Of a stretch of DNA of 55,713 nt, positions 7,462 through 43,637 are shown one piece after another. The notes under the pieces are model-generated. The model saw nothing but the letters and a program-made list of their open reading frames with translations, had not been told where the DNA came from and did not search any database. Positions within the stretch are counted from its first letter, which is position 1. Each line of letters starts with the position of its first letter. Position numbers and translations under genes: made by a program. Origin of the DNA: an uncultured Gammaproteobacteria bacterium (GTDB lineage Bacteria > Pseudomonadota > Gammaproteobacteria > Pseudomonadales > Ketobacteraceae); the NCBI GenBank assembly GCA_913063125.1, contig CAJXZM010000014.1, forward strand, positions 1 through 55,713. Reading direction: 5' to 3'.

Positions 7462-9582
7462 TCAACCGCCCTTGACATAATGACTCTGCTCACCATAACT
7501 CAATACCAGCACCCGCTTCTTCGCACGCGTCAAAGCAACATACATCAAGCCCCTTTCTTCAATATCAGCCAGCCGCTTCTCAACCTCATCACCTTTGCCT
7601 TCTATCGCAAAGCTCAATGGAACGATGCCTTCATTGATACTTGCCAATATCATTTCATCAAATTCAAGACCTTTAACCCGATGCATTGTTGCCAATCGAA
7701 CCGCATTTTTATTCGACGACTCCTGATAAGCATCCACCATGGCGACTTCAATATCAGCCGCCTTCAAGGCACTCGCGATATTATCGCGTTCCTTTGATGT
7801 TCGAGTGGTTATGCATATATGGCTCAAAGGAAAATCATCCGCAGCTCGTTGCTTTAAATAACTAGCGATAAAATCCGATTGTTTCTCTGCCGTATCAAAT
7901 TGCTCTATTTTTGGTGCGTCACCATGGGTTAATGACTTATACCCCTTATTGTCATCTACACCACCATCCAAATCATCAATGGCGCAACCTTCTAGCAAAT
8001 TCACCGCCCAACTTCGAATTTCCTCAGTAGTACGATAATTCACTTTGAGCTTCCTCGCCCTACCGCGAATATTAATACCACACTGGCTCAATACCACTTT
8101 ATTACGCCCATATATTCGCTGGTGACCATCACCCACCACGAAGATATCATTGGCGCCTTCTGGCACGAGCTGGCGCATCAACTTAAACGCCTGGGTACTC
8201 ATATCCTGCCCTTCATCCACAATCAGTGATTGATATGGAAAGGTTTGTGTATCTTTTTCTAACAGTGCTGCGACATCACGATAAGCATCATCCACTTCTT
8301 TCTTTTTACTTTGGGTCAATAAGTTGCGGTATTCCTCAAATACTGGCCACACTTTAACTCGCTCACTTCTGCTTAGCCGTGTACCTCGGCCGACACGCGA
8401 CGCGCGTTTATACTGGTCTAATGACTCAACACTTTGAGGTTGAATAACCTTACGCCACTCTTCTTGATAAAAGGCGTCAGGAACATCCACTTCCGATACA
8501 GCCAAATCCAAAGCCTGCTTCCAATACTTTTTATCGTCAGTATTGTAGAGAATCGTGTACTCATATTTGTTTTTGCGAAGGTATTGGGTCACCCAACGAT
8601 CAAGGTTAATAACCTCGATTTTTTCCAACACGTCTTTCGAACAAATGGATGACAAGTTCGTTTCAATATCGGTTGCCAAGTTTTTTGTAAAGGTCGTAAA
8701 AAGGATTTTTTGATTACCTTCAAGAACATGCTCTGCCAACCATTTAGCACGATGCATTGCGACAACCGTTTTACCGGTACCGGCTCCTCCTAGAACGCGA
8801 GATGCTCCATTTTTGATGCCTGATACCAGCTTACGTTGTGATGGGTGCAGAAATACCCGCCACTTATCCAGTGGCGCGTTAAGCATAGCGTGCAGTTCAA
8901 TATCATCATCCACAACAACAAAGCGACTCTGCGTAGCCAATCGTTCAAGTGCTGCCGCAAAGTCACTGGTGTCGATTTCAGCTTCTTTCACCAATTCACG
9001 ATCATTAACAATTTGATCGTATCCAGTTCCCGCCATATACATAAACAAGCCTTCATAGGCCTCAACAGGCAAGCGGTGTTCAATAGCGTCTAACTCAAGT
9101 TCATTGTGAACACCCCGCACCAGTGTAATAAGCTCATCAGGAACACCAAGGCGTAACAATTCTCGGTCTTTCAGTTCCACGAAGATCGCAGCTACATCAA
9201 GCACAGCAGCACTTTCAGGCTGCTCTACAACAGTCCCTTCTTCCGCTTCATAAACCTGTATTGCGCCATTACCCGCATTGATATTACACCGATGTCTACG
9301 CGCCCAATCATAAGCGTCATCGTGATGTGCCACCCAAAGCAACATAAACACATTGCCGCTTTCAGGCTTCAGTACAATTCCCCGGTACGCCTGATCTATC
9401 CGCACCGAGCGCATATTAGGATCTTTAAAGTCATGTATTTTTTCGTAGTTAATAGCAGAGGACATTGGATCTTGCTGAAAATTGGTAATGAACTTAGAAA
9501 CCTTGCCCTGTTGCGTTTGTGGCAACTTAGCAAATGCCGAGAAAAAATCGGAAGAGATTGCTACCGTAACATTTTGGCTCAT
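7462..9582 (-). CDS. UvrD/Rep-type helicase with RelE/ParE-like N-terminal domain
   Basis: An SF1 helicase: Walker A GGAGTGKT (about residue 265), Walker B-like VDEGQD (about 455) and a final VALTRAKKR motif (about 685). It would move 3'-5' on single-stranded DNA at the cost of ATP. The first 100 residues (FFSAFAKLPQTQQGKVSKF, then SVRIDQAYRGIVL and VFMLLWVAHHDDAYDWA) resemble the RelE/ParE toxin fold, an arrangement known in stand-alone UvrD-like proteins. ATG 9582 is preferred over 9597 because AAGGA lies seven bases before it. It follows the giant helicase by 70 bp and is probably cotranscribed. The role of the toxin-like domain is unknown. Confidence 0.85.
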   Translation of the reverse strand: MSQNVTVAISSDFFSAFAKLPQTQQGKVSKFITNFQQDPMSSAINYEKIHDFKDPNMRSVRIDQAYRGIVLKPESGNVFMLLWVAHHDDAYDWARRHRCNINAGNGAIQVYEAEEGTVVEQPESAAVLDVAAIFVELKDRELLRLGVPDELITLVRGVHNELELDAIEHRLPVEAYEGLFMYMAGTGYDQIVNDRELVKEAEIDTSDFAAALERLATQSRFVVVDDDIELHAMLNAPLDKWRVFLHPSQRKLVSGIKNGASRVLGGAGTGKTVVAMHRAKWLAEHVLEGNQKILFTTFTKNLATDIETNLSSICSKDVLEKIEVINLDRWVTQYLRKNKYEYTILYNTDDKKYWKQALDLAVSEVDVPDAFYQEEWRKVIQPQSVESLDQYKRASRVGRGTRLSRSERVKVWPVFEEYRNLLTQSKKKEVDDAYRDVAALLEKDTQTFPYQSLIVDEGQDMSTQAFKLMRQLVPEGANDIFVVGDGHQRIYGRNKVVLSQCGINIRGRARKLKVNYRTTEEIRSWAVNLLEGCAIDDLDGGVDDNKGYKSLTHGDAPKIEQFDTAEKQSDFIASYLKQRAADDFPLSHICITTRTSKERDNIASALKAADIEVAMVDAYQESSNKNAVRLATMHRVKGLEFDEMILASINEGIVPLSFAIEGKGDEVEKRLADIEERGLMYVALTRAKKRVLVLSYGEQSHYVKGG

Positions 9583-9652
9583 TCTTAAATCCTTCATTAT
9601 TTTTCTAAATTATTGTAGGTTTTATAATTGTGTTATGTAGTTGCATATATGG

Positions 9653-12600
9653 TTACTGATGCAGCTGCTTTACGGCCTGATCAACCCACTCACCCGCTTC
9701 ATCCAGCACTAATACTTTCCAACCGGCTTCTTCAAATTTTTCCGAATACTCAGCTTGCTCGTCCAACAACCCTACCATTTTTTCGCCATGCCATACCAGT
9801 TCAGCTTCAGCGATGATTTCGCCATCATCTTGTTGTAATTCATACAACGCGTCCGGTAAAGGCAGCTGTTTTTCCGATAACTGAGTCAAACCATCCACAA
9901 GTTCTTCTAAAGTGTCATCCAATAACGTCGCTAATTGATCACCTATAACACCAAGAGCACCAAACGACGGCTCATCCGATTGACCCGCCCAATGAATCCC
10001 CTCATACAACCCTGCCTTCAGCCCATCACGAGAAACAAAACTCGTCAGAGGTAAAAACTGAAACAGGTTATATAATCGGATAAAGCCGAACCACGCCTCT
10101 TGATTTACCTCACTATCTGCACCAATGGTGGTGTCCAATAGGATATTTACAAACATCAACTCCGTATCTTTCGCCGCCAGAGCCTGTGTGGGCAATAAAC
10201 AAGTCACCGTTAACGGATCTTTACGTGACGCCAAACTCAACCCGCCAACCGCTACTGGACCGCTAACATTATCAAGCTGATGCTCTAACCACGTACAGCT
10301 TGATTCTTTAAAACGCTCAACCACACTTTCGACAATTGACGGATCTAGCATCTTTTCCTGGTTAAACCAGCCCATTGCATGCACAAAGGCCATCTTTCGC
10401 CAAGCGAGTTCATCAGGCTCAGATAAATAGTCCAATAGCTGATGAAGCGGTGAATTCACCGGAATCTTACGCAAAGCTCCTAACTCAAAACTCTCTGCCA
10501 ACTGCATTTGAAGCGGCTGCATTTTCGGTTGCAGCTGCTCCGTAAAGGGGTTACGCGTTTCCATTTTTGACTTAGTAAATTGCTCATTCACATCTTGCCA
10601 GGTCAACGACCACACATAATACCGCCCACTTTGTACTATTGCCGTTCGTTTAGCGCTATCTTCCCCTGCAATACCTTTATGGTATTTGTACCCATCCATA
10701 AACAAAGCAATAGGTTTAAAGTTATCCGCGTTACGCGTGGACTCAATGAGAAAATCCGGTTTTGATGAATAACTCACTCCCTGTTTTTCATTCAACGATA
10801 CCTGCGGCTGGATTGTATACGCTTGCTTACCCACACGAAGGAAAAAACCCGGCTTGCCATTAACCACTTGTTGGTGCACTTGCAAATCTCTACCCTGCAG
10901 AGAAGAGCGCTTCAACGCTGAAATAAAACGAGCCTCAAGTTCACTGTCCAACACGGGATTAACGGTGATCAAATCAATGGTTTTAGTTTCTTTAAATTTA
11001 TCCCGCACGTCTAAAATACGATTAAGCAACTCTACCGCTGTATCACGAGACGTTGATTCCATACCATGACTATTCCGATAGGCATATAAACAACGATAAC
11101 AGCCGTCTTTTCCTCTCTCCTGATTACAGGAACAATTCACCATCGTATCCCTGGCGGATTCAAATACCTTCAATAGATCTTCTGGTGAGCGCATCAGCTC
11201 ATGAAGATAACCGGTTCCACCGGGTACGGAATCATACAACATTAAGTATCGGCGTTTCGCATCACTGTCCGCGATGGGTTCGTCATAAGACATCACACGG
11301 AGGTGATCCACTTGCCCACCAAATTTTTGGCGTAACCCTAGCTGCAACGCAGCAATAAACGAATTAAGATAACGCCCCTCCCCCTCTACCGTGACAATGG
11401 GTAAAAGGATGCGCAACGCCTCAGAATCGAAGTTTCGATAAAGGTATAGACACTGAATCAGATTGGCTTCATCGGTTTTATCTTTAACACCACAGGTAAA
11501 GGCATGTACCTGATCGCGGCCACGCTTTTCCTGCACCATGCCGCAAGATTTACATAACTTGAACCCTAACCGGGGTTTTGACTCACCGGCAATACGGGTT
11601 TCTTCTGCTTCACCACCATACTCACCAAAATTAACTTCCCTAAAGGTAACCTTACGAATAAATTCAAAACCAAAAGGCAACGTATCGTCTTCTACCTGAA
11701 ATGCCGTCTCCACATGATCACGAGAAAAATCCGCCAACAATTGTTTGGTATAGAACACCGGCTCCCGATCTTCGCTATCATCACCGATACGACTATCCCT
11801 ATCACTGGTATTTGCCATTACCTGACGCATTTGAAGCATCGCGGCACGTTGGCCAGAATCACTCCACATAGGGTCATGGCAACGAGGACAAGACTCCTCT
11901 ACCAAGGCAGAAGCATCCAATTCCGTATGGGAGCAGCTTGGACAAAAACGCCAATACTCAATGCTAGACAGTTTGAGATCAACTTGCTTAACAGTGACCT
12001 GGCGCCCCCCCGCATAAAAACGGTTTTCCGGCGCCAACTCACTAATCGCCGCAGCTCCCGGTCGCTCATACTCATAGACTTTATTTGTATACGAGCTTTC
12101 ACCATCTTTAGCATTGGGATTTTTTCGATAAATAATCGAGCGTAGTATCACCCCCGCTTCTGGGAACGCATAATTAGGTATTAGGCCCTCATCCGTAAAA
12201 AAATTAAGGGTTTGCTTACTATTAATCTGGCTGAGTATTGCTTGTAAACCACCCCGTTCCAATTGCGCTGCTTCGATCTGCTCGCGCACAACCTCGTCGT
12301 CAGGTTCCTTTTCCAGTTTAGTGATAAGCCGCTGTAATGAACCTACGCGCTCTTGCAAGCTTTTCCGTTCATTCACCAGATCAAATAAACGCTTAACAAT
12401 ACGCTGCTCTAAGCCATCAAAATCTGAGTCGTCATAGATAAAGTGAGAAAGGTATTCTCGGGTACGTTCAGTGAATTCGTCCGTAAATAACGTATAGAAT
12501 TTTTCTAATATTTCTGGTGCATTCTCTTTTACAAACGCCATGAAATTATAAGGGAAATCTGATAACGCTCCCTTTTCGACACTGTTTAATACCGGTTTTA

Positions 12601-15600
12601 ACCCCTTGGGTATCGCACTGGCATCAATACCCGTCAACACCCAACGATCAAAACAGTAAGCGGTTAACTGGCGCGCCACCACCGCCGACGCATTTAGAAA
12701 TACACCAGGAGGCTCAATGCGACCGGCCATCATTTGCATCGGATCCGCATAAAAAAACAGATCGTGTGGTGAGCCCTCTGCAACCGTCATATTAAACGCA
12801 TTGCCGTCCCGTCGACCCGCTCGGCCAATACGTTGAAGATAATTTGCCTGCGCGGGAGGCACAGAACAGAGTAACACCGATGAAAGATCGCCAATATCAA
12901 TACCCATTTCTAACGTTGGCGTTGCCGATAGGAGGTTTGGATACCAAGGCTTTTCATCACTGTGAATAAACTGATTTTCTACCCGTTCCCTGGTTGTTCT
13001 ATCCAGCAGTCCCGTGTGTTCCTCACCAATAACACGGTGAATATCCCCGGTAAGATACAGCTTTGATAACCAATGCTGCTTCTGATCCGCAATCTCATAG
13101 GTACTGATATCACTCTGAAGTAATGAAGGCATCCCCACCACTTGCTCCGCCATATCCCTAGGCACCATTAGCTCATTCTGTTGGCCACTGCTGACCAACC
13201 TGACGGTATCACCACTTAGCAGTAAAACATCCGGATTGATACCCCAAACAATATCAGCACGACATTCAAAGGAAATCAATACCCGCTCATCAACCAATAC
13301 CTCCAAAACCACTGGATACAGTGCTTTTTCAAAACAACTTTCCAGTAACCGCTCTTTCCCCAGCGCACTTTCCACCCACTGAACATACCAAGATTTAGGC
13401 TTATCTGAGAGTAAACAATCAAACTCCCCATGACTTTTAGCGCTGGTTAAGAAAATAGGCGCCCGTGACTGTGGTGCAAAAGAAGGAAGAAAGGAGAGTC
13501 GCGTTAATAGGAAGTTCTTACCGCCACTGTCAATATAACCATCCAAGAACGGATGATAAATCGCTCCCCGTTCTTTCAAGTGAAACAACAACCCCAATAA
13601 GAAATGTTGAATTTCCTCAAAAGATACATCCTTTACCCCCAACTGTTCCCGCACCACAGTGAGCAACCTCTCTGCCGCGCGGTTAATCGGGTCAAGATCA
13701 AACCCCATGGCAACAGTACCGGTTCTCGCCAAGGATCGCCCGATTCGAGAGCGGTAACCAAACTCCGCCAATACCTCAAATTGTAAGCGCTGGCTAATAT
13801 CATAAATAAGTTGGTTTTTCTTTGGTAGCTCGCCCTTCTCCACCAACGCCACGTAGTCATTGTAATACTGCATGTTAGGTGCGATAAACTCACACACAAA
13901 CCGAATTTCATCTAACGCTTTAGGATTAAGCGACTCGTCCAACCAAAACCGCGGAAGATAATCGTAAAATGCCTCTAAGGTACATCCTTCTTTTGGAATA
14001 GCCTGGGCAATCGCCATACGAATATTATGCTGCCAGGTGCGAGCAGAAAAGAACCCAGCGCGATGCGCAGCATCTTGAACCCCATCACTAAACGCAATCA
14101 GTTTTTTGTCATCGTTGTACGGCGTGGCGTAGCTCTGATGCACTGCTACACTAGCGATGGTTGCCGCCCTAGCACCAAACACCATCAATGAATTTTCACT
14201 CCCGCAGCGCGGACAATTATGTTCAGACACGAGGCGAGGCACTCCACCACGGCGACGCTCTCGAACGTTATTGGGAACAAAAACCCGATGCAACAGGTTA
14301 TCACCACACGCCTGGCACTGATCACTGCCCCACTGTAAATTACCGCAACCCGAACACAAATGATGAACATGCCCCTCTGCAGCAGGCTCCTTCTCTTCTT
14401 CTGTTAACGGAAATAAGGTAATTAACTCTGGGCTATGGTTAAAGAAATTATTATAGATACCCCGCAGGTCTGTATAGACCTGGCTCTTTTCTTTGGACTT
14501 CACTGCCGCCCATGCTGAAGTATTACACTGACTACAGTGCAGCAAGGGTAAATGAACCTCGCCTGTGTTCTTTGTATTATCGTCAGAAAAAGCCAGTTCA
14601 ACGGGCTCGGCTTCTCCCTTGTCATCTAATGTAGGTTTAAGGGGGGTCACCATACGACGTAACTCTCGCACCCATAATTGCATGCGCAAATTCACTAACG
14701 GCAGCGCATCAACTTTTGGATCTCTGGCACAAGAAATCAGCGCACATAGGCTATTTAATATGGCTCTAGAGCAATCTCGGAACGTTACTGGTAACACCTT
14801 AGCAAAAGCAACAGTGAGATCATCAAACGAATAAGGTTGCTTATCTAACAAACGCAATAAGTTATAGAACAACTGGTGCTGCTTTAACTCACCGCCAAGC
14901 GCACTACACCAAGCTTTGTCGGTTGGTTTCGCCTCATCCATTCCAGGAAAAAACAGTGCATACTGAGCCACTAGATAATCGTTAATACTCGTATACTGAT
15001 CGGGATCTAAAACAGCCTTAGAATCTGAATTAAGCATAAGTATGAAGTTTATGGTGTGGTTCTCCCCCATAAACGTCCCAATATCCTGGCGACTTTCCGC
15101 CACAATACTGTTCTCACCAAACTGCGCCTGAAAAATCTGCTCAGCATATTGCGTTAAGGCCAGTTGCTCATCACCACTGCCTAAGGTGGCCGACGTACCC
15201 GCACAGATTAGCTGGTCGCCTGTGCATTCTAGCCGTGCTTTCAATCGGCGGATCAAACACGCCAAATCAGTGCCCTGGGCACCATCAAAAGTATGTAATT
15301 CATCCACCACCAAATAACGCAATGTACCCGGATAATTATGCTTCCATAATTTCTGATCGCGAGGTCGCATTAATAGAAAGTCGAGCATTTTATAGTTGGT
15401 CAACAGAATATCCGGAGGGGTCTCGCGGATTGCATTTTTATCCGTAATCACCATGTTAGGGCCCATGGTTCGTTGTGTATCGTCATCCCCCCCCACAAAC
15501 AGACCAACCCTCACGTTGCCCCGCAACGTCTCCTGACCATGAATTGTCTTGGCAAAACGTTTAGCCTGATCGGTAGCCAACGCATTCATGGGATAAATAA

Positions 15601-15982
15601 TGATGGCTTTAATCCCTTTGCCGGTATCACCAGCACAATGATCCAATAAAGGGTACATAAAGCATTCCGTTTTACCGGAGCCCGTTCCCGTTGCAATCAG
15701 TGTAGAACGCCCCTCTTTATCGGAAGCCAACCGATTCCAAGCCTGTTGTTGATGTAAAAATGGTGGATAGTCGGTGGTAAAGCGGGAGAAAAAATCTACC
15801 CCTTGACTACCCTGTTGAAACGGTAGACTCAACGAAAGATACGGCCCCTTGACCATTTGGCCAGAACGATCCACAAACCGCGAAAACACATCTGCAAAAA
15901 AGGGTGAACTACTCTCAAAACCCGTAGTAATAAAACTTTTCAGACCTTGAGAAACTTCTTGTGACAGTACACTTGGGATCAT
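9653..15982 (-). CDS. Giant DEAD/DEAH helicase with DUF1998, Vsr-like nuclease region and shared C-terminal module
   Basis: A 2109-residue SF2 helicase. Walker A GTGSGKTE (about 97) and DELH box (about 226) form lobe one; RIGRAGRR (about 1050) marks motif VI. Zinc-ribbon-like CxxC pairs occur around 480-560 and 1370-1400, and DUF1998 near GGTGYLHEL (about 1590) ends in a Cys cluster (CSCNQERGKDGCYRC). Residues about 1700-1800, with KPDFLIE and ALFMDGYKYH, look like a Vsr/DUF559-type PD-(D/E)XK region. The last 65 residues form a module shared with the DUF262 and HNH proteins. It differs from the DruE-like helicase in Cys spacing and in the extra domains. Its place after zorABE suggests it is a core part of the same system. 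The nuclease call is inference. Confidence 0.88.
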   Translation of the reverse strand: MIPSVLSQEVSQGLKSFITTGFESSSPFFADVFSRFVDRSGQMVKGPYLSLSLPFQQGSQGVDFFSRFTTDYPPFLHQQQAWNRLASDKEGRSTLIATGTGSGKTECFMYPLLDHCAGDTGKGIKAIIIYPMNALATDQAKRFAKTIHGQETLRGNVRVGLFVGGDDDTQRTMGPNMVITDKNAIRETPPDILLTNYKMLDFLLMRPRDQKLWKHNYPGTLRYLVVDELHTFDGAQGTDLACLIRRLKARLECTGDQLICAGTSATLGSGDEQLALTQYAEQIFQAQFGENSIVAESRQDIGTFMGENHTINFILMLNSDSKAVLDPDQYTSINDYLVAQYALFFPGMDEAKPTDKAWCSALGGELKQHQLFYNLLRLLDKQPYSFDDLTVAFAKVLPVTFRDCSRAILNSLCALISCARDPKVDALPLVNLRMQLWVRELRRMVTPLKPTLDDKGEAEPVELAFSDDNTKNTGEVHLPLLHCSQCNTSAWAAVKSKEKSQVYTDLRGIYNNFFNHSPELITLFPLTEEEKEPAAEGHVHHLCSGCGNLQWGSDQCQACGDNLLHRVFVPNNVRERRRGGVPRLVSEHNCPRCGSENSLMVFGARAATIASVAVHQSYATPYNDDKKLIAFSDGVQDAAHRAGFFSARTWQHNIRMAIAQAIPKEGCTLEAFYDYLPRFWLDESLNPKALDEIRFVCEFIAPNMQYYNDYVALVEKGELPKKNQLIYDISQRLQFEVLAEFGYRSRIGRSLARTGTVAMGFDLDPINRAAERLLTVVREQLGVKDVSFEEIQHFLLGLLFHLKERGAIYHPFLDGYIDSGGKNFLLTRLSFLPSFAPQSRAPIFLTSAKSHGEFDCLLSDKPKSWYVQWVESALGKERLLESCFEKALYPVVLEVLVDERVLISFECRADIVWGINPDVLLLSGDTVRLVSSGQQNELMVPRDMAEQVVGMPSLLQSDISTYEIADQKQHWLSKLYLTGDIHRVIGEEHTGLLDRTTRERVENQFIHSDEKPWYPNLLSATPTLEMGIDIGDLSSVLLCSVPPAQANYLQRIGRAGRRDGNAFNMTVAEGSPHDLFFYADPMQMMAGRIEPPGVFLNASAVVARQLTAYCFDRWVLTGIDASAIPKGLKPVLNSVEKGALSDFPYNFMAFVKENAPEILEKFYTLFTDEFTERTREYLSHFIYDDSDFDGLEQRIVKRLFDLVNERKSLQERVGSLQRLITKLEKEPDDEVVREQIEAAQLERGGLQAILSQINSKQTLNFFTDEGLIPNYAFPEAGVILRSIIYRKNPNAKDGESSYTNKVYEYERPGAAAISELAPENRFYAGGRQVTVKQVDLKLSSIEYWRFCPSCSHTELDASALVEESCPRCHDPMWSDSGQRAAMLQMRQVMANTSDRDSRIGDDSEDREPVFYTKQLLADFSRDHVETAFQVEDDTLPFGFEFIRKVTFREVNFGEYGGEAEETRIAGESKPRLGFKLCKSCGMVQEKRGRDQVHAFTCGVKDKTDEANLIQCLYLYRNFDSEALRILLPIVTVEGEGRYLNSFIAALQLGLRQKFGGQVDHLRVMSYDEPIADSDAKRRYLMLYDSVPGGTGYLHELMRSPEDLLKVFESARDTMVNCSCNQERGKDGCYRCLYAYRNSHGMESTSRDTAVELLNRILDVRDKFKETKTIDLITVNPVLDSELEARFISALKRSSLQGRDLQVHQQVVNGKPGFFLRVGKQAYTIQPQVSLNEKQGVSYSSKPDFLIESTRNADNFKPIALFMDGYKYHKGIAGEDSAKRTAIVQSGRYYVWSLTWQDVNEQFTKSKMETRNPFTEQLQPKMQPLQMQLAESFELGALRKIPVNSPLHQLLDYLSEPDELAWRKMAFVHAMGWFNQEKMLDPSIVESVVERFKESSCTWLEHQLDNVSGPVAVGGLSLASRKDPLTVTCLLPTQALAAKDTELMFVNILLDTTIGADSEVNQEAWFGFIRLYNLFQFLPLTSFVSRDGLKAGLYEGIHWAGQSDEPSFGALGVIGDQLATLLDDTLEELVDGLTQLSEKQLPLPDALYELQQDDGEIIAEAELVWHGEKMVGLLDEQAEYSEKFEEAGWKVLVLDEAGEWVDQAVKQLHQ

Positions 15983-16077
15983 TATTTATCTATCCAATTA
16001 TTCTTCTTTAATCACGCTACTGAGTATGCAAAAACCCACCAAACAACGCAGCCACACGCCGCATTACATATTACGCC

Positions 16078-17223
16078 TTAACCATATTCCAGCGCGTCAG
16101 CCACCGTTAACACTCGCCAACGCAAAGCTATCACTTTCGTTTTGTCTTGTTCAACAATATCCACAATTTGCTTCCGTTGTTCCCACACCAGCTCTGCATT
16201 GGAATACACAATTTCTCCTTGATGATCAACCACATCACCACCTACCTCCGGCGCTTCCCAATTTCTACGCTTACGCAATAACAATAAATCATGCACAGCC
16301 GGGTCACTTTGTTCAAATGCCTCATCCCAGGCTTTATCAGATCGGCTTCCCTTGGTTGGCGTATACAGGTTCTGCTCAATACGCATGGATTGGATCTGCC
16401 TTCGGTGCTCTGAAGAAACAAACATACTGTCATGCAAGGGCGCTTTACTGTGGCAATCTACACAAAGCACTGACAGGTTTTCTGTCGCATTATCATTTCG
16501 GTTACCGTTAATATGGTGTACATGCAAAAGGTGCTTACGCTCTTTCAAGTCAAGTTTACATTCACTGCAACAAAAATTCGCCTCCCGGCGTACTCGACGA
16601 GAGATAGTTTGCCACTCATCAACGTAAGTATTAGCCGCATACTTTTCCAGCAGTTCTTTAGGCTTCTGAGTGAAGTACGATGAGTAACGAGCAAAAAACG
16701 CATCAAAAGCGAAATCCTCAACAACTGCTCTTTTTTGTTCACGGTTTTTACTTCTGAAATCGTGATAATTCAGTTTAGACAGACAGTTTTGACAAACTGC
16801 CAAATGTGCCATTCTATTTTCATCGGTATAGCGATGTGCATCGCTCCCGGTAACAGCAAATTTCTGTGACAAACCATTACGCGCAACGTAACGTTCATAA
16901 CGGTTGGCTTCTTTCATACTGTTGATAGTGCTGCAATTTGCCAAATGAACCCGCTTACCGCCCTTTGACTTAACGCCATTCGTCATTACATCCCACAAAC
17001 TACTGCCTTGATCTGGAATATATAATACCGCCTGCTGTCCAAACACCGAAATAAGCCCACCGGAGGTGATAACCACGTCCTCCGGGGTAACTTCGCGTCC
17101 ATCAGACAGATCAATATCCACTTCTTCGAAGGCATTATCCAATTGGATTTGGAAATCAGGATCATAAGGCCCCATCAAATCCACCGCCTGCTGCAAAGCA
17201 GAAAAATCAACGTTAATGGCCAT
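16078..17223 (-). CDS. zorE: HNH endonuclease in the ZorE position
   Basis: A clear HNH/beta-beta-alpha-metal domain at about residues 205-265: CSEC, then HVHHINGNRND, ENLSVLCVDCH. An extra Cys set (HLANC, AVCQNC) lies in the N-terminal half. The last 55 residues (HQGEIVYSNAELVWEQRK) match the C-terminal module of the giant helicase downstream and the DUF262 protein upstream. Its ATG overlaps the zorB stop by one base (TAATG), so translation is coupled. Zorya type II is zorA-zorB-zorE with an HNH nuclease as effector, so position and domain fit ZorE. I cannot confirm full-length homology to the E. coli ZorE, so the symbol is provisional. Confidence 0.75.
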   Translation of the reverse strand: MAINVDFSALQQAVDLMGPYDPDFQIQLDNAFEEVDIDLSDGREVTPEDVVITSGGLISVFGQQAVLYIPDQGSSLWDVMTNGVKSKGGKRVHLANCSTINSMKEANRYERYVARNGLSQKFAVTGSDAHRYTDENRMAHLAVCQNCLSKLNYHDFRSKNREQKRAVVEDFAFDAFFARYSSYFTQKPKELLEKYAANTYVDEWQTISRRVRREANFCCSECKLDLKERKHLLHVHHINGNRNDNATENLSVLCVDCHSKAPLHDSMFVSSEHRRQIQSMRIEQNLYTPTKGSRSDKAWDEAFEQSDPAVHDLLLLRKRRNWEAPEVGGDVVDHQGEIVYSNAELVWEQRKQIVDIVEQDKTKVIALRWRVLTVADALEYG

Positions 17224-17948
17224 TATCCATCAGCCTCAAGGATTCTGCGGATTTGTATCTCGGCATTGGTCATCACCCGGAAACTCACTCGCCGTGACTT
17301 GTCCCGGTCTTCTGCCCCCGCCTCATCAACAATAATTCTAGAAGACGATAATCCCACGGCAGCCATATGTCGTGTGATCCACTGTTTATCCAGCGCCCCT
17401 TCCGGCAGCTCATAAACATACTCAAGCACCGCTCTCGTCCGCCCTTGGGACAGTGCCATATTTTTAAAATAGGCCTCATCCGGTGTCACAAACCGATTCC
17501 ACACGCTACTGGTATGCCCTTCAATACGAATCTCATCAATGGAATCAGAATATTGCGCCAGTACTCCTAGATAACGCGGGAAGAACTCGCCCAATATCTC
17601 TTGATATTGTTCTTTTAGCGTAATGTCCCCCATAGCAAACAACACATCGGGAGAATGAAAATTAAATGCCAAGGTATTTTTGTCAATTTCTGCCCCCCAG
17701 CGGCCCAGGTCGTTATCAAACTCATCCACCAGCGCCGTATAAATAGCCACCTGATTTTCTTGATAAGCCACCGCCACTTGTTTAATTTTATCCCGTTCCA
17801 AAAAGGCCGTACGCATCAATGCGATGGAGATAAACAAAAACACCATCATCAAACCAGCCATCAAGTCCGACACCGACAACCAATGTTCACTATCTCCACC
17901 CTCTTCCGATGAACGAGATGAATTTAACCAGTTATTCACCACAGCCAT
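17223..17948 (-). CDS. zorB: ZorB: MotB-like stator with OmpA peptidoglycan-binding domain
   Basis: One membrane helix at about residues 26-45 begins with SDLMAGLMMVFLF; Asp28 is in the place of the proton-carrying aspartate of MotB/ZorB. The C-terminal half is OmpA-like, with EGHTS and the DKSRRVSF segment that binds peptidoglycan. The 241-residue length fits ZorB. In known Zorya systems ZorA5B2 is a proton-driven inner-membrane motor anchored to the cell wall that senses phage entry. The ATG overlaps the zorA stop (ATGA), and the stop overlaps the next start, so subunits are probably made in fixed ratio. Confidence 0.93.
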   Translation of the reverse strand: MAVVNNWLNSSRSSEEGGDSEHWLSVSDLMAGLMMVFLFISIALMRTAFLERDKIKQVAVAYQENQVAIYTALVDEFDNDLGRWGAEIDKNTLAFNFHSPDVLFAMGDITLKEQYQEILGEFFPRYLGVLAQYSDSIDEIRIEGHTSSVWNRFVTPDEAYFKNMALSQGRTRAVLEYVYELPEGALDKQWITRHMAAVGLSSSRIIVDEAGAEDRDKSRRVSFRVMTNAEIQIRRILEADG

Positions 17949-19849
17949 CAGCTCGTTAACTCCGTTTTAACTACTTTCGACATTTGTGATACCAACCCCT
18001 GATAATCCTGAGTAAAGCGGCCCGTCACTTGGGTAAGGGAACCTCCCATAGAATTCATCGCGGTTTCAATCTCTTGTTCTATGGCGCGAATACTGCCTTC
18101 GAGTTGCACGTTAATGGATTCACCCGTACGAGATGCAGCCTCGGTAATCGCCGTTTCCAACAATTTAAAGAACGTCTGCATTTGCTGAGACTGTTTATCA
18201 TGTTGCTCACGCATGTGACCTTGCATACGTTCATTTGAAGACTCTAAATACCCTAACAAGCGCTGCTGCGCTTCACCGTGGGCCCGCTGAACCTGCTGCC
18301 CTGTATCACTGATACCGGCGATACCATCGGTTATCGCCTTTCTTACCGCCACGCCACCCGAAGAAAGCTCATCACTCACCGCTTTGGATTGGTCCTTTAT
18401 ATCACCAATCATGGCACGCATATGGGAGTTAACATCACTTACCGTATCTTCCATGGTTTGGCTCATTTCTTCGGTACGTGAATTCAGCGCACCCGACATA
18501 TTTTGCAAAGAGACATTGGTTGCTTGCACTGCCTTATCAAAACCATCAGCACCATTCACAATGATTTCACTGATATGGTTAGAACTGTCCTTTAGACCGT
18601 CACCAATCAACTTTACGCCTTCCTCAAAACCATGGTTAACGGATTGAATACCTTGCTTAGTACTATCAATAAATTGATCAACCACGTTTTTAGAAGCATC
18701 ACTGTATTGCTTAAGATACACATCAGAGTCTTCTAGCAATTGATTGTAATGACTATTGGTTGCCTCTACACACTGACTGATTTCCTGGATTGTTTTATCT
18801 ACCTGTTGGCGAATTTCTGGTACCGCTTCTACAGCCCGGTCTCGCATATCACGGAACACTTCCAAGTGCCGTTCTAATTCCGCCAATTGATGCTGATTGG
18901 TTTCTAGCACTGTTTTTAACTGATCCATATTGGCAGGGATCAGGCTCGACTTTTCACTAATATTGGCAACAGAACCCTCTGTTTTGGTGATAGCCTCTAC
19001 CCCTTGGGCGTATTGATCCATCATTTGCACCAATTGGTGACGGTAATTTTCTTGCCAATCGACCAACGACAAAACCGCAGCATTTAACTGTTTGAAGTTT
19101 TCACCAAACTGTTCCGTCAGCTGATTATTAAAGTCTTTGATAACTTCTTTAAGAGCATTAATCACTTGTTCTGTGGCGGACTTAGACAACATCTCAGCAA
19201 AGGTTTCCATCTGAGCCCATAACTTGTCACTAAAGGTCATAAAGTTCTGACGCTGATGCTTGGCTAGTTTCACCAACAGTTCCATCTGCTCATGATTGTT
19301 ATCAGCATGTTTGATTAACGCCTTAAGGTGATCATTTGAATCACTACGTTGTAACTTGATTTGGCCCACTACGGTATCTTCATCTTCCCCAGCAATGACT
19401 TGCTTTAACTCCGTAAGCGCAACTGATTGCTCCTTAATAGCGTCAAAAATATGCGATGCACCGATATCTTCGGCAGATAATTCAGAAGCCGCTTTGGCTT
19501 TTCTCTCCAACAACCCGGTACTTAACACTACTTTGTAGAAAATCGAACACGCCATACCCACCAAGCTGGTAATAAATGCCGTTTTTAAACCCGCGAGCAA
19601 TAGACTGATGCTGCCGTCAATATCGGTAGCATCAAATGCCATCAACCCCACGACGATACCAACAAAGGTGCCTAAAATACCTAATGAGGTGAGCAGTGTC
19701 GGAGCATAACTCACCACATTGGGTTCTTTGCCCACACGCAATAACACAAATGAAATACATAACGTAGAAACAATTAACCAAAGAAATATTTCAGTAATAG
19801 TTCCTGCGTTTGAATTTTGTAATATCGACTCTAAATATCCTGATAACAT
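17948..19849 (-). CDS. zorA: ZorA: MotA/TolQ/ExbB-family motor subunit with long coiled-coil tail
   Basis: Three membrane helices are visible at about residues 18-40, 52-73 and 84-108, the last two matching MotA/TolQ/ExbB (LGILGTFVGIVVGLM and GLKTAFITSLVGMACSIFYK). The remaining 520 residues are almost entirely heptad-rich helix, the long cytoplasmic tail typical of ZorA, which transmits the signal to the effectors. Length is in the ZorA range. It is coupled to zorB by an ATGA overlap. The gap to the upstream DUF262 gene is 63 bp and contains three 16-bp tandem repeats. No ZorC, ZorD, ZorF or ZorG is recognised nearby, so type II is the nearest named type. Confidence 0.93.
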   Translation of the reverse strand: MLSGYLESILQNSNAGTITEIFLWLIVSTLCISFVLLRVGKEPNVVSYAPTLLTSLGILGTFVGIVVGLMAFDATDIDGSISLLLAGLKTAFITSLVGMACSIFYKVVLSTGLLERKAKAASELSAEDIGASHIFDAIKEQSVALTELKQVIAGEDEDTVVGQIKLQRSDSNDHLKALIKHADNNHEQMELLVKLAKHQRQNFMTFSDKLWAQMETFAEMLSKSATEQVINALKEVIKDFNNQLTEQFGENFKQLNAAVLSLVDWQENYRHQLVQMMDQYAQGVEAITKTEGSVANISEKSSLIPANMDQLKTVLETNQHQLAELERHLEVFRDMRDRAVEAVPEIRQQVDKTIQEISQCVEATNSHYNQLLEDSDVYLKQYSDASKNVVDQFIDSTKQGIQSVNHGFEEGVKLIGDGLKDSSNHISEIIVNGADGFDKAVQATNVSLQNMSGALNSRTEEMSQTMEDTVSDVNSHMRAMIGDIKDQSKAVSDELSSGGVAVRKAITDGIAGISDTGQQVQRAHGEAQQRLLGYLESSNERMQGHMREQHDKQSQQMQTFFKLLETAITEAASRTGESINVQLEGSIRAIEQEIETAMNSMGGSLTQVTGRFTQDYQGLVSQMSKVVKTELTS

Positions 19850-19874
19850 GTTTACTTCCCTTTTTAATTACTTC

Positions 19875-19922
19875 TTTTCTTTACGCCTGCTTTTCTTTAC
19901 GCCTGCTTTTCTTTACGCCTGC
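19875..19922. repeat. Three tandem copies of a 16-bp unit at the end of the DUF262 gene
   Basis: TTTTCTTTACGCCTGC is repeated three times without change (19875-19890, 19891-19906, 19907-19922). On the coding strand the copy nearest the gene contains the last Gln and Ala codons and the TAA stop; the other two lie in the gap before zorA. This looks like replication slippage and could change spacing or mRNA structure between the two genes. Confidence 0.85.
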
Positions 19923-22198
19923 AACGCTCGATTTAGTAACTCAGCGTTTTCCAACACTTCATGCTGTTCAAACACCAACCAGCCCATGGTGCGAACATCA
20001 CTTTGTGACTCATTACCTCTACCCGTCCATATGCCGACCTTACGGTGCGGCCACGCGATCTCGAATTCCCCACACACTTCACCCTGGTCATTAATGAGTT
20101 CATAACCACAATCCGGTACATCAAGCTGTGTTTTAATAATATGTCGTGCCACCGACACAATGCTGTCATCCAGCTCATCAGCCCAGTCTGGCAAACCGTA
20201 TTTAACCTCCCCTAGAATGGAATGCATAACGTGCGTTTTTAGTGCATCAACATCCGTAAAGTATGTAAACCCATTTTGATTGGCGGCATTAAGCACTTCT
20301 GGGCCTTCATCAATTAACAATGCCAAGGGGTTTGAGTAACCCGCCTGTATACCTTCGGGCCACGCCATATCAAGGTGGGCAATAACATCACCACTTTCAT
20401 GATCTACTAATTCATATTCGATAATGGCTTCAGGTAGCTTATGCTCTAGCATCCATTGATTAAGCGCTTCTAGCGCCAACTCTTCTGCCTCACTGGTGAT
20501 GCCACCAACGATATCGATTCCGTTGCCTTCAATTACAGCACCGTCAACGCCCTCAACACCCTCAACACTAACAATACCGGCTTCTTTCGTACCTCTACCA
20601 AAATGAGAGTCCACTAACGTGCCTGGAAGCTGATATAAACTATCTAACCGTTGATTGGCCGCTTCCGCCAACAATTGCTGTCGCGCTATAAGGAACGCAG
20701 GGTAATTTTCTACCTTCCATAATTCCTTATCCATGGGTATCCATTGGGACGCCAAGGCACCAGGGTATTTGCGCTCTACTTCTTCAAAATAGATCTCGGG
20801 GTTACTATCGCTAATTTTTATATTGGTATCTTTAGTAAGAAAACAGAAATTGGCAATTGCGTTAATCTGCGCTTTACCATAGCCATTCTTCTTTAGATAA
20901 GCCTTAGGGAAAATATGGTGCACTTCCAATTTACTGTGTTTACCCAAAAGGTTTTCCTTTAACGGAATACCTAATCCCCAATCCATCGCGTCACCCATAC
21001 GGGTTAGCATATACAACATGGGATAAAAACGAGCGCCTTTACTCCAACCGCTGAAGTGCTCAGGACGTATATGTAAATCACCACGCCAAAGTAAGAGGTC
21101 TTTAATCAACACATCCAACCCATTATCCGTATCACGGATCAACTCTAAGTCTTTATTAACCATCGACTCGGTAGACCCAGAGAACTTGCCCCACATAGCG
21201 CTATGGAGGTACCAGAACAGCAATTTGTCCCGTTCGACCTCATTGAATAGCACATCCTCATGATGACTTATATAATGTGTCAACACCGGGAAAGCATAGG
21301 GACCAAATAACACCCGACTATGATCCAGGCCCAAACGCCCAGAAATCACATTCAACAGGTTATTTACAATTTTGACGGCTTTTTTCATCGCTGCCTTAAA
21401 ACTGGCTGAATCTAGCTGGTGCAACGCTTTAAACAACGCCTCCCCAGTAGCGATAGTATTTATATTCCGTAGCAACCAATCCAATTCAAAGTTAAACCCT
21501 TGCGCCGACCATTCTTTTAATACGTCACGCATCTCGGACCGCGCATCCGGCCAATCCGCACAAATTTTCGCTAACGCAAGATCACCTTTCGATAACTTGG
21601 TACCACCACTGTTCACGCGATTAAAGATATCCACCACCACATCAATGGTTTTATCCTCTCCCGTCACTTCTTCTATCTGAAAATTAATATCACGAATACC
21701 ATGAACCAAATTTAACCGTGTAAAATATTCAGTGGTTTTATCGGCAGCGGCATTCGCCGATATCTCCGCGATAAAGGGGCCGATACCTTCTTTCATCAAA
21801 CGCGACACATCAATCCACAATGGATCGTTTTTCATCTTCTTCGGCATATAGAAGCTAAACTCTTCGCTTTCCAGATTAAAAAACAAATCCGTAAACGCTT
21901 TATTGTCACCGTCAAAAAAAGCCGGAGCCTTTCCCCGTATCACGCCATATAACGAGGTAATACGTTGCTGCCCATCAAGCAACAACTTAACAATACCCGC
22001 GGCCAATTCGTTATCCCCGCGGTGATCCGCAGACTTAGATTCGGTCGCCCACACCAACAAGCTACCGACAGGATGACGCTTATAGAGTGAGGCCATTAAA
22101 CCCCTCACCTGATCCCGGTTCCACACATAACCCCGTTGAAATTCAGGCAACGCCATATGGCCGCTGTCGATATGATCCAGAATGGTAGAAACTTGCAT
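19913..22198 (-). CDS. GmrSD-like DUF262/HNH (DUF1524) protein with duplicated C-terminal module
   Basis: The N-terminus (ALPEFQRGYVWNRDQVRGLM) is DUF262, a ParB/Srx-like NTPase domain with LLLDGQQRITSLYG. A DUF1524-type HNH follows with EVHHIFPKAYL at about residue 426. Together this is the GmrSD (type IV restriction) layout, which cuts modified DNA and uses nucleotide hydrolysis. Beyond it lies an extension of about 200 residues with two copies of a small module (YELVDHESGDVIAHLDMAW and YELINDQGEVCGEFEIAW). The same module ends the ZorE-like protein and the giant helicase downstream. ATG 22198 has AGGAT at proper distance; ATG 22204 is too close to it. The spacer from the methyltransferase gene is about 100 bp. 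Confidence 0.88.
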   Translation of the reverse strand: MQVSTILDHIDSGHMALPEFQRGYVWNRDQVRGLMASLYKRHPVGSLLVWATESKSADHRGDNELAAGIVKLLLDGQQRITSLYGVIRGKAPAFFDGDNKAFTDLFFNLESEEFSFYMPKKMKNDPLWIDVSRLMKEGIGPFIAEISANAAADKTTEYFTRLNLVHGIRDINFQIEEVTGEDKTIDVVVDIFNRVNSGGTKLSKGDLALAKICADWPDARSEMRDVLKEWSAQGFNFELDWLLRNINTIATGEALFKALHQLDSASFKAAMKKAVKIVNNLLNVISGRLGLDHSRVLFGPYAFPVLTHYISHHEDVLFNEVERDKLLFWYLHSAMWGKFSGSTESMVNKDLELIRDTDNGLDVLIKDLLLWRGDLHIRPEHFSGWSKGARFYPMLYMLTRMGDAMDWGLGIPLKENLLGKHSKLEVHHIFPKAYLKKNGYGKAQINAIANFCFLTKDTNIKISDSNPEIYFEEVERKYPGALASQWIPMDKELWKVENYPAFLIARQQLLAEAANQRLDSLYQLPGTLVDSHFGRGTKEAGIVSVEGVEGVDGAVIEGNGIDIVGGITSEAEELALEALNQWMLEHKLPEAIIEYELVDHESGDVIAHLDMAWPEGIQAGYSNPLALLIDEGPEVLNAANQNGFTYFTDVDALKTHVMHSILGEVKYGLPDWADELDDSIVSVARHIIKTQLDVPDCGYELINDQGEVCGEFEIAWPHRKVGIWTGRGNESQSDVRTMGWLVFEQHEVLENAELLNRALQA

Positions 22199-22304
22199 AA
22201 ACATTATCCTTTTATTCTTACATTTTTATGCTGGACTGGAGAGAGATCGATTTTAAGCACACCTCTCTGCTAAACATTAGTTATCTCAAGTAGCGAATTC
22301 AGAT

Positions 22305-25300
22305 TTACTCTTTCGTAACGGCAAAGCGTTCTTCAAAGGCTTTCCAGGCGATACGGTAATCGTGTTCACGATCACAACGATCAAATGGCGCAACGTAGGT
22401 GATTTTTTTCTCTCGGGGGCCGCCGGGTAAAGTATCGTCGATTACGGTTTGGATCACTTGAGTTCCGGCGGGCAAGCTTTGGTGATCAGTCCAGTTGATA
22501 TCGGCGAATGGGGTGCCCTGGTTTAACTGGTTAATGGCGCTGGTGGGTTGCAGGTCTTCCCAACCGATGACTTTTTCTTCAGTCGCACGACCGGTTGAAT
22601 CAGGATAGATAATGGTCACCGGTGTATCTTTATTCTTATTGCCTTTTCGAGGAAGACCTACTCCGATTAAGCCTTTGGAGGCAGTAAAAATAATACGGCC
22701 ATTGGCATCGTACCAGGTATCATTTTCATATTGGCGCATTACAGGAAATTGGACGCGGTAAATGGTTAACAACTCTTGCAGCGTTAGGCCTAGTGCCTGG
22801 GCGGCGAGCACATCGATTTCAACCAATGTCTGCCTTCTACAAAAAACGTTCTTCATACCACAACGACTTTGCCAACTCGGTGTTAGTTCTGAAAAATATT
22901 TATCTGAAAGTCTATCGTCTTTTTTCGCCCATTCATCAAATGGAAATGTTTCAGACCAATTACCTGCCCATAGATCTTGATAAAACTCACTTAAACTGTT
23001 GAGCACAAGAGCCCTTAAATGCAACGATAATCGATATTTTTCATCTACCAAAGTTGGCAATTGATTTATTAGTGTTGTGTTTGCATGCCCCATGCCCGTA
23101 CTTTTAACCCGATAATCGATAGGTATTGATAGCGTCATAGCATGATAATCTAATAAGTCAGCATGTTTTTTAAATGAAGTAGCTACACAAGTATTAATAT
23201 GTGCAGTACCCGGCGGCATAATCACCGAAATCAACGTTCGCTCACCCGACTGGCTTAGCATTTCACGATTCACATGCCTATAAAATTCCGTAACAGGCCT
23301 TTCCTTACTTTCCCCCTCCTCAACCCACGGCACCCGTGTCGTTCTACGAAGATATTCAGCCTCGTCGCAGGCGGGAATGTAGTTGCTACGCGGCAGGTAG
23401 TTGTCTGGTAAATCAACTAGGTCCAATACATCATAATCACTATTGAGTTTTGTAATAGCTCTAGGGGTTTTATAACAAGGGTTTCCTACAAAAAAATGAG
23501 GGCCGGACAGCACCCACTGTTTTGTCGATTCTGGAAATTGGGTTTGACGTTTAATAGTGCCATCGTTTTGTGCATTCACCTCATTCCAGCATGTAGATGG
23601 AGTTGTATAATATTCTCCTTCAAGATCACCTAACCGCTTAGTTTGCTGAGAAAACTTATCTAAAACCGACATTAGTTCTTTCGCATGTAAGGCTGGTAAA
23701 CGAGCTTCACCGGCCGGAGTCCCCGGTTCATCATAAAGTGTAGCGAATATTTTTAGAGTTTCATTTTGTACGGTAATAATCCTACTTTTATGTCCAGCGA
23801 CATTCCATTTGCCTTTATCATTTTTTATTCCTGGAACGGCCCCAACCCCGTCATGTCCAACACAAGAATCAATCGAACTTGGGCTAAATAAATTGGCAAT
23901 ATGCTTAAAATTGACACTACTCTTCTCACCAAAAATATTAATGCTATACATTGTTGCATGATGAACTTCAGAAAAAAGGCTTAGCTCATTGTGAAACTGG
24001 AAATGAGATCGCAGACGCGGATAAACCTCCGCTCGAAATCCCCCTCCTTTCGGATCATCATAAATACCTTCTGGATGCAAGAAACCCGTCACTCCGGTTT
24101 GACTGCAAATCATCCACGCCTGCGGCAAAAAGCACTTATATAGATTCGCCTTTTGACCAGACAATATAGAATAATTTTGATCTGAATTTAGAAAACTCTG
24201 AGTTGCTTCCGCCTGTTCCAGCTCGCCAAACCAAGACTTTTTTAGTTCAGAATACTTTTCGAAACTTTTTAAACGCTCATCACTCATTTTCGTAGCAGAG
24301 AACTTACGTAAGTTAAACAAGGGATGATAATCCCCCAACACCCCACCTTCTTGCCACTCCACCTTTAACCAAGGCGGATTCCCCAAAATAAGGTCAAATC
24401 CCCCATTTTTAGCAAACTGATCAGCAAAGTTTAACTCCCAATGAAAAAAACGATTTTTCTCTGCCAGTTGATGTACCAACTTTAGCCGTGGAAAGTGTTT
24501 ATATAAGGCTTCAATCTTTAACTGACCTTTACTATCCGTCAGTTGCGGCTGCTCCTGCGCTGGTTGATCAAAGGCAAAGCCACCTTGGGCATCAGTGCTC
24601 GCTGTCGCTTTCCTCGCACTACTTTGATCTGTTGGTGTTGCTTCTCCAGAAAAATCAAACCCGCCTTGTTCTGGCCTTTGTACATCCAACACATTGCCAT
24701 TTAGCAATAGGCCAATTTCCATCAAAAAAGTATCGCGGTCTGGCAACAAGTGTGCCTGTTCAATAGGCCAAAACCATAACGCACACCAGTAATCCATCAC
24801 CATTTTTAAACGTCGATAGGCACTGGCGGTTTTACTATTAAGGTTAAAGATACCCTGTTCTCTGACCTGATCTTTTTCTTGAGTAGAGGAAACTCGATCT
24901 TCAGCGTTGTTATTGGGCCAAACCGCTAGAATATCCTCGGTGCGATTGCGGTCAGTGTCCAACTGCTGTGTATGCTCTTGCCATAACTGATCGACTTTGT
25001 CCGATAGAAACAACAAGGTCTTAATATCATCGGCGGCAAAAGGTTTAACAAATCCGTTGCGCCATTTTTTAATGGTATCAAACTTTTCAGGCTCCAAGCT
25101 TTTGGCAACTTTATCGGTATAGTTTGCCATACCTGGATCGGGTAATAAGAAATGGTAGATCTCTGATTCTGCTCGCTGCCAGGGTAGTTCGTCTTCTGTG
25201 GCGTTAGCCGGATTTTGCTCTGCTGCCCCAGCAAGACTTAGCGGATTTAACCGCGTTGGCGCCCTATCGTACCAGGCATTACCTTTGACTTGTTTACCCA

Positions 25301-43185: not shown

Positions 43186-43625
43186 TAGTACAAATGCTTA
43201 ACTTTTAGGTCTAAATCAGAATTCTCATTTAGATATTCGACAACTAAACGCCGGTGACACAAATGAGGCTCATGTTCGCTGCATAATAGACACCCCTTAT
43301 CTAGCAGGGATGGCTTTACAGATTTTTCAATATTTCTCTGTGACATCAAATTTAAAAACTTATCTTCGTAAATATCCCAAGGAATATCACCATTCTTGTA
43401 TGCTTTTAGCATTTCTTTAGTTGGCGCTAGCTCTGGCACATGGACATATTCTGCACCACACAATTCATTTAGAAAATATTTCAGATCATCTCTTTTAGCA
43501 AAACCAGCTAATTGAGAAATATTATTCAGACGCACATCTAATAATGTCGATATATTTGAAGACCTAATAAAGCCAAAAAATGTTTCGGCATTTTTTTTTG
43601 TAAAACCAATTGTAAAGATTTCCAT
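43185..43625 (-). CDS. DUF488 family protein
   Basis: A 146-residue protein with the DUF488 layout: MEIFTIGFTKKNAETFFGFI at the start, LLDVRLNN, then CLLCSEHEPHLCHRRLVVEYL near the end. The CxxxxxxxxCHR cluster is the family hallmark. Some members are fused to or encoded with nucleic-acid-related domains, but no activity is established. It lies 12 bp after the dual-OB gene and is coupled to the DUF4326 gene. Normal family length, so probably intact. Confidence 0.88.
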   Translation of the reverse strand: MEIFTIGFTKKNAETFFGFIRSSNISTLLDVRLNNISQLAGFAKRDDLKYFLNELCGAEYVHVPELAPTKEMLKAYKNGDIPWDIYEDKFLNLMSQRNIEKSVKPSLLDKGCLLCSEHEPHLCHRRLVVEYLNENSDLDLKVKHLY

Positions 43626-43637
43626 AGATCACTCGTC

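What the first reader, a model, noticed from the sequence alone, without database searches (positions are those of the whole stretch)
9653..22198. A small C-terminal module is shared by three different proteins flanking zorAB
The DUF262/HNH protein ends with two copies, and the ZorE-like HNH protein and the 2109-residue helicase end with one each. The common pattern is D/N-x-x-G-E/D-V/I, four or five residues, E/D-hydrophobic-A/V-W, then a basic residue and a hydrophobic strand (GEVCGEFEIAWPHRKVGI; GEIIAEAELVWHGEKMVGL; GEIVYSNAELVWEQRKQIV), and in most copies a later GW-x-V. Unrelated enzymes with a common tail suggest a docking domain that recruits them to one partner, perhaps the ZorA tail or DNA. 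The strand/E/K spacing also recalls a reduced PD-(D/E)XK or Vsr-like fold.
Basis: partly seen in the sequence, partly recalled or inferred. Interest (0 to 1): 0.93.

Follow-up and report, generated by a model that had tools for sequence, protein, structure and literature searches.

The report
Shared dead-nuclease tail across antiphage enzymes
The same small protein tail, related to a family of DNA-cutting enzymes but missing key catalytic residues, ends several otherwise unrelated antiphage enzymes encoded side by side here and in other bacteria, and it is predicted to be a common docking handle through which separate defence systems could be coordinated.

Summary
All four window copies belong to one domain of about 75 residues: profiles built from one host class find the others, and outside ZorE models find it on non-ZorE proteins. 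The helicase is ArmC of an ARMADA type II system; zorABE and a DUF262/HNH gene sit between armB and armC, with Druantia III upstream. Three other loci nest zorABE there too. Further hosts: two TmtA (Tiamat-like) ATPases, DUF262 proteins elsewhere, one standalone protein and, weakly, a UvrD helicase. Predicted fold (pLDDT 94) and profiles place it with Vsr/DUF559-type PD-(D/E)xK nucleases; it keeps the first acid (57 of 58) but not the second (1 of 58) or the DGxxH motif (0 of 58). It is markedly acidic on ArmC and DUF262, mildly on ZorE. None of the genes tested as partner (ZorA/B, ZorE, ArmC, ArmD) accompanies it everywhere. Two 2025-26 preprints separately describe ArmC's inactivated Vsr end and an unassigned nuclease-like ZorE extension; in what I read neither joins them. 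Shown: homology, spread, residue loss. Inferred: acidic protein-docking handle; partner unknown. Rivals: cis-acting lid, DNA binding.

The parts
20195..20485 (-). Tail copy 1 of the DUF262/HNH protein (residues 574-670), divergent variant with an insert
   Evidence: helicase-tail HMM E 0.008, ZorE-tail HMM 4.9; hhalign of copy-1 family vs ZorE tails 97.0%; one clade with five other DUF262 tails, 100/97
19916..20194 (-). Tail copy 2 of the DUF262/HNH protein (residues 671-763)
   Evidence: PADLOC ZorE model E 8e-11; helicase-tail HMM 2.5e-11
16081..16341 (-). Tail of ZorE (residues 295-381)
   Evidence: AlphaFold2 model of residues 293-381, mean pLDDT 94.0
9656..9907 (-). Tail of the 2109-residue ArmC (YprA-family) helicase (residues 2026-2109)
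19913..22204 (-). DUF262/HNH (GmrSD-like) protein, 763 aa
   Evidence: Pfam GmrSD_N E 2e-28; GmrSD_C only 0.0098, below its cut-off
17948..19849 (-). ZorA (type II)
   Evidence: PADLOC E 4e-205
17223..17948 (-). ZorB (type II)
   Evidence: PADLOC E 1e-98
16078..17223 (-). ZorE HNH protein, 381 aa
   Evidence: PADLOC E 6e-109
9653..15982 (-). ArmC: YprA-family helicase with a Vsr-type nuclease domain and the tail
   Evidence: DGYKYH motif; three E. coli ArmC read have the same tail
7462..9597 (-). ArmD: UvrD/GajB-like helicase; RelE-like N-terminal part by the published description, not scored here
   Evidence: gene order as in Bell et al.
22305..27440 (-). ArmB: PglX-like / type IIG-like methyltransferase
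27458..30475 (-). ArmA: BrxHII/DrmD-like helicase
30472..36891 (-). DruE of Druantia III (no tail found on it)
   Evidence: PADLOC DruE3, 2088 bits
36888..40349 (-). DruH of Druantia III (no tail found on it)
   Evidence: PADLOC DruH3 E 2e-221

Best explanation
The four C-terminal stretches are copies of one roughly 75-residue domain, related by profile to Vsr/DUF559-type nucleases but missing their second catalytic acid and DGxxH motif, and it likely works as an acidic protein-docking handle that would bring different DNA-processing enzymes of neighbouring defence systems to one shared partner. Shown: common descent of the four copies; presence on ArmC, ZorE, DUF262 proteins, TmtA and a standalone protein; residue loss; acidity. 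Predicted: the fold. Inferred: no catalysis, and docking rather than DNA binding. Unknown: the partner. [quoted passage not shown] RecBCD itself was not tested.
For: Reciprocal profile hits between host classes and low controls; outside models match. AlphaFold2 pLDDT 94.0, pTM 0.83; 14 to 16 of the 26 VIA rows are PD-(D/E)xK enzymes by my recall of the entries. First acid in 57 of 58 tails, second acid in 1 of 58, [DE]xDGxxH in 0 of 58, against 21 of 21 in a comparison set that was itself picked for DGxxH (21 of 29 rows kept). Net charge per 100 residues against the rest of the same protein: ArmC -15.0 vs -1.7 (20 rows, one gene twice), DUF262 -13.7 vs -2.2 (7 tails of 6 proteins), ZorE -5.3 vs +0.8 (50), TmtA -15.7 vs -3.4 (2). 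Standalone copy between tailed zorE and tailed tmtA in Vibrio albus. Tailed ArmC in 9 of 44 tailed-ZorE genomes against 6 of 397 sampled genomes (p 1.4e-6). zorABE between armB and armC in the window and L032, L044, L064.
Against: No partner was found: ArmD-like protein in only 13 of 49 ZorE-locus genomes; ZorA/B not convincing in three of six tailed-ArmC genomes. Most ZorE tails are only mildly acidic, 5 of 44 not negative. The published pull-down found no stable ZorE-Druantia complex. Whole ZorE is predicted with pTM 0.84 and residues 281-380 at pLDDT 92-97, which could mean that the tail packs onto its own enzyme. Of five ZorE-locus genomes without a tailed ZorE, one (G441) also has tailed ArmC, so the pairing is not strict. 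The co-occurrence test is not controlled for phylogeny: the samples differ, and four of the nine genomes (Escherichia, Enterobacter, Serratia, Yersinia) carry one kind of array.
Confidence: 0.42

Rival explanations
1. The tail is a cis-acting acidic lid: a DNA-like surface that covers the DNA-binding groove of its own enzyme until infection.
For: Strong acidity on ArmC, DUF262 and TmtA; whole ZorE predicted as one confident chain, pTM 0.84, residues 281-380 at pLDDT 92-97; no universal partner among the genes tested.
Against: ZorE tails only mildly acidic; a standalone copy exists; the published AF3 model of ZorE has the C-terminal region flanking DNA.
Confidence: 0.25
2. The tail binds a DNA structure such as a nick or branch and aims each enzyme at the same intermediate.
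For: Nuclease-related fold; first acid and a basic residue kept (57 and 53 of 58); published synergy runs through shared DNA intermediates.
Against: Net negative in 10 of 10 ArmC tails and 39 of 44 ZorE tails; 21 DUF559-like segments average +1.7. This is no clean contrast: those segments are longer, 5 of the 21 are negative, and 12 active Vsr segments of ArmC proteins average -0.7.
Confidence: 0.17
3. The tail is an inert structural cap inherited from an ancestral nuclease fusion.
For: Catalytic residues lost; ZorE tails group together in the tree (92/77).
Against: Several separate host classes keep it; near-invariant P, W, GW and acid; two copies on one protein and a standalone copy.
Confidence: 0.11
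4. The tail is an active nuclease.
For: One catalytic acid and a nearby lysine/arginine kept; Wu et al. describe a nuclease-like pocket in ZorE's extension.
Against: Second acid 1 of 58 and [DE]xDGxxH 0 of 58.
Confidence: 0.05

Closest known systems
Predicted inactivated Vsr domain at the end of ARMADA II YprA (ArmC) helicases (Bell et al. 2025, PMC12458937; abstract, sections 5, 6, 8, 26 and search passages read)
   Same: Position after the active Vsr domain; inactivated; very probably the same segment as the ArmC tail here
   Different: The main text has no occurrence of ZorE, DUF262 or GmrSD; I did not search it for TmtA, and its supplement was not readable
Nuclease-like C-terminal region of Druantia-associated ZorE (Wu et al. 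2026, PMC13192584; abstract, sections 5, 9, 10, 15, 16 and search passages read)
   Same: Same end of ZorE; on 53 of 59 Druantia-associated ZorE leaves; conserved pocket recalling PD-(D/E)xK
   Different: Left unassigned; 'Vsr' and 'ArmC' have 0 occurrences in the main text. Here it is also on ZorE in 35 of 44 genomes where no tailed ArmC was found
MTES_1575 (PF18741) / DUF559 (PF04480) / Vsr (PF03852) nucleases
   Same: Strand order, D/E-x-A-W/Y-P...K/R, GWxV; hhalign 98.2%
   Different: Tail lacks ExDGxxH and the loop and helix part that follows
RAP domains of FASTK proteins, Vsr-like C-terminal ends of mitochondrial RNA regulators (seen only as titles and abstract starts)
   Same: A Vsr-like C-terminal module of uncertain catalysis; a works-like parallel
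   Different: Eukaryotic, RNA-binding; no membership claimed

Membership tests
Vsr/DUF559-type PD-(D/E)xK fold | a-b-b-b-a-b core | tested here: met
Vsr/DUF559-type PD-(D/E)xK fold | Sequence-profile similarity to the family | tested here: met
   hhalign 98.2% to 21 actinobacterial domains, of which two were scanned and hit MTES_1575 and DUF559. Against: the tail did not align with ArmC's own active Vsr domain (0.5%), and single tails hit no such Pfam model
Active Vsr/DUF559 nuclease | Second catalytic acid and DGxxH | tested here: not met
   1 of 58 and 0 of 58
ARMADA type II | BrxHII-like, PglX-like, YprA-like and RelE-GajB-like genes, the last following YprA | tested here: met
   same order by product names in three E. 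coli records; the RelE part was not scored separately
ARMADA type II | Strict gene order without other genes | tested here: not met
   DUF262 and zorABE lie between armB and armC
Zorya type II | zorA2, zorB2, zorE2 | tested here: met
Druantia type III | druH and druE3 | tested here: met
GmrSD-like restriction protein | DUF262 domain with DGQQR | tested here: met
   GmrSD_N E 2e-28; DGQQR in the translation
GmrSD-like restriction protein | DUF1524/HNH C-terminal part | tested here: inconclusive
   GmrSD_C E 0.0098, below the curated cut-off
Docking domain | Binds a protein partner | not testable with these tools
   no complex prediction or binding data

The most novel reading that the evidence does not exclude
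A dead-nuclease handle is a shared interface of bacterial immunity: Zorya II, ARMADA II, DUF262 restriction proteins and Tiamat-like ATPases carry the same tail so that one cellular hub can gather several independent systems on an infecting genome, and this physical code underlies their synergy and their nesting in one operon.
Probability: 0.22. Interest if true: 0.87.

Novelty: new variant of a known kind. Interest (0 to 1): 0.63.

Why it matters
Synergy between Zorya II and Druantia III, and between Druantia III and ARMADA II, has been measured, but how separate systems are coordinated is open. One homologous tail on enzymes of several systems gives a concrete, deletable and swappable element. 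It also merges two observations that I found unconnected in print, the inactivated Vsr end of ArmC and the unassigned ZorE extension, and offers a marker for finding further linked defence proteins.

Tried and rejected
ZorA as the common partner: not supported as general. Among six sampled genomes with tailed ArmC, five gave only a tail match to the ZorE model (G214 is not among its matches at E 0.001). ZorB2 and ZorA2 models: G214 none; G075 and G140 ZorB at 26 bits or less, ZorA 21 bits or none; but G002, G006 and G097 have distant ZorB-like frames (57, 71, 46 bits; the window's scores 327), so another Zorya type there is not excluded.

ArmD as the common partner: matches of at least 279 bits in 13 of the 49 ZorE-locus genomes and in 0 of 5 others searched. 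It does adjoin the tailed TmtA genes in both cases found.

Tail as a copy of ArmC's own active Vsr domain: hhalign did not align them (0.5%), although the actinobacterial set aligns with that domain at 96.7%. A first attempt was spoiled by two wrongly cut rows, L134 and L183.

Recent copying of tails inside the operon: not supported; ZorE tails form one side of the tree (92/77, not starred, 86 columns), copy-1 tails one clade (100/97); ArmC tails are scattered and unresolved (6 changes; L012 was dropped).

Widespread standalone tails: six hits in the protein search; on reading them five look like ZorE C-terminal pieces and one is the Vibrio albus protein. The 102-residue frame in L130 looks like a ZorE remnant.
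Full report
WHAT IS THERE. The minus strand of the window reads, in order of transcription, druH, druE (Druantia III), a BrxHII/DrmD-like helicase, a methyltransferase matching type IIG and DrmMI models, a DUF262/HNH protein, zorA, zorB, zorE, a 2109-residue YprA-family helicase and a GajB-like UvrD helicase. By the description of Bell et al. 2025 (PMC12458937, sections 5 and 6) the BrxHII-like helicase, the methyltransferase, the YprA-family helicase and the UvrD helicase are ARMADA type II (armA, armB, armC, armD), so zorABE and the DUF262 gene are nested between armB and armC. Three E. coli records that I opened have, by product names and order, druH-druE-armA-armB-armC-armD uninterrupted, and all three ArmC proteins end with the tail. 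In the one whose upstream side I opened, zorABE lies divergently beyond druH and its ZorE has the tail.

THE TAIL IS REAL. With single sequences the helicase tail and DUF262 copy 2 find each other well, the ZorE tail only marginally and copy 1 not above noise. Class-specific HMMs find the other classes. Profile-profile comparisons give 99.6% for ZorE against ArmC tails, 95-98% for either against the two DUF262 copies, and 98% for either against TmtA, against 0.3% or less for four ZorE-core controls. Models made by others agree: the PADLOC ZorE model hits the DUF262 protein, two TmtA proteins and ArmC of five other genomes at its tail positions only, and the NCBIfam ZorE model matches 52 of 58 aligned tails, of which 44 are from ZorE.

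HOW WIDE IT IS. Of 54 loci that a ZorE-core pattern scan returned, 47 have the tail on ZorE; one of the seven others (L083) is only a 58-residue match. All four query rows had tails, so this share is biased: in an even sample of 299 genomes of the phylum, ZorE matches over much of the core occur in six genomes besides this one, three with the tail, those three of one genus. The tail profile matched 13 of 398 phylum genomes at E 0.01 (this one included; one, G344, spurious), 14 of 369 class genomes at 0.001 (this one included; at least two are active nuclease domains), and 47 of 49 genomes behind the ZorE loci, which is a selected set. In the phylum sample seven genomes besides this one have an ArmC homologue at E 1e-60; the six whose C-terminus is present all have the tail, the seventh is cut by a contig end. 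Bell et al. say 'often, but not invariably'. New hosts are two TmtA-like ATPases (L139, L184), each followed by an ArmD-like gene; DUF262 proteins with one copy-1 type tail (L131, L132, L188, L195, L196), with type I restriction genes beside L131 and L132; a standalone protein of 91 residues as annotated in Vibrio albus between zorE and tmtA; and, weakly (E 0.002), a GajB-like UvrD helicase in L186.

HOW IT MAY WORK. The tail is the most acidic part or nearly so of ArmC (17 of 20 rows in the lowest 5% of windows of their own protein) and DUF262 (6 of 7), less so of ZorE (18 of 50) and TmtA (1 of 2). That speaks against general DNA binding and for a protein surface or a cis-acting lid. ZorE tails and DUF262 copy-1 tails each group by host enzyme, not by locus; ArmC tails are unresolved. 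Tailed ArmC is commoner in genomes with tailed ZorE (9 of 44 against 6 of 397), a comparison without control for phylogeny, and one of five ZorE-locus genomes without tailed ZorE has it too. zorABE lies between armB and armC in L032, L044 and L064, there with one to three other genes, and just before armA in L062. Yet ArmD is found in only 13 of 49 ZorE-locus genomes, and ZorA/B are not convincing in three of six tailed-ArmC genomes. I therefore prefer a docking handle for a partner outside these loci, and name RecBCD only as an example, because the published synergy depends on it. Against this: Wu et al. saw no stable ZorE-Druantia complex, and the whole-ZorE model suggests that the tail may pack on its own protein (I had no coordinates, so contacts were not examined).

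WHAT IS KNOWN AND WHAT IS NEW. Bell et al. describe the inactivated Vsr end of ArmC, and Wu et al. the unassigned ZorE extension on 53 of 59 Druantia-associated leaves. The main text of the first has no occurrence of 'ZorE', that of the second none of 'Vsr' or 'ArmC'; supplements were not readable. Searches for joint mentions listed no paper on a shared tail by title or abstract start; I opened four papers, two of them (PMC11890865, PMC10952713) only as passages. New here, as far as those searches go: that these two ends are one domain, that it also occurs on DUF262, TmtA and standalone proteins, its kinship to MTES_1575/DUF559, its acidity, and the nesting of Zorya II in ARMADA II.

Noticed in passing
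9653-30475 and loci L032, L044, L064: Zorya II lies between armB and armC of ARMADA II here and in three loci of other families; in L062 zorABE directly precedes armA.
   Followed up: partly
L139:2548-9813 and L184:6455-13516: A TmtA (Tiamat-like) gene with the tail is followed by an ArmD-like UvrD gene, with no armABC in the stretches read: a possible new two-gene association.
   Followed up: partly
L031, L042, L046, L051, L057, L059, L067, L075: In Vibrionaceae the tailed zorABE is followed by a second, weakly similar zorA/zorB pair and further genes, perhaps Zorya I.
   Followed up: no
L074, L076, L077, L078 against tailed loci: Four of six tail-less ZorE loci have a short ZorA frame (432-466 aa), while the unbroken ZorA frames beside tailed ZorE listed are 518 aa or longer; not tested on a tree.
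   Followed up: no
L065 / L140 (G432:C6:3941-4159): A tail-like stretch with a stop lies just past the end of a tail-less zorE (E 0.0018): perhaps a lost tail.
   Followed up: no
G002, G006, G097: Genomes with tailed ArmC also hold distant ZorA/ZorB-like frames elsewhere, perhaps other Zorya types.
   Followed up: no
5778-7232 and 40490-42136: Two genes beside the defence array had no PADLOC match; the first also had no Pfam match.
   Followed up: no
43185-44252: Two genes match PADLOC candidate system PDC-M45 (M45C, M45A).
   Followed up: no
G427:C69:8570 and 19497: The genome behind L060 (Cycloclasticus symbiont) has two ZorE tails with the same score on one contig, suggesting a duplicated Zorya locus.
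   Followed up: no
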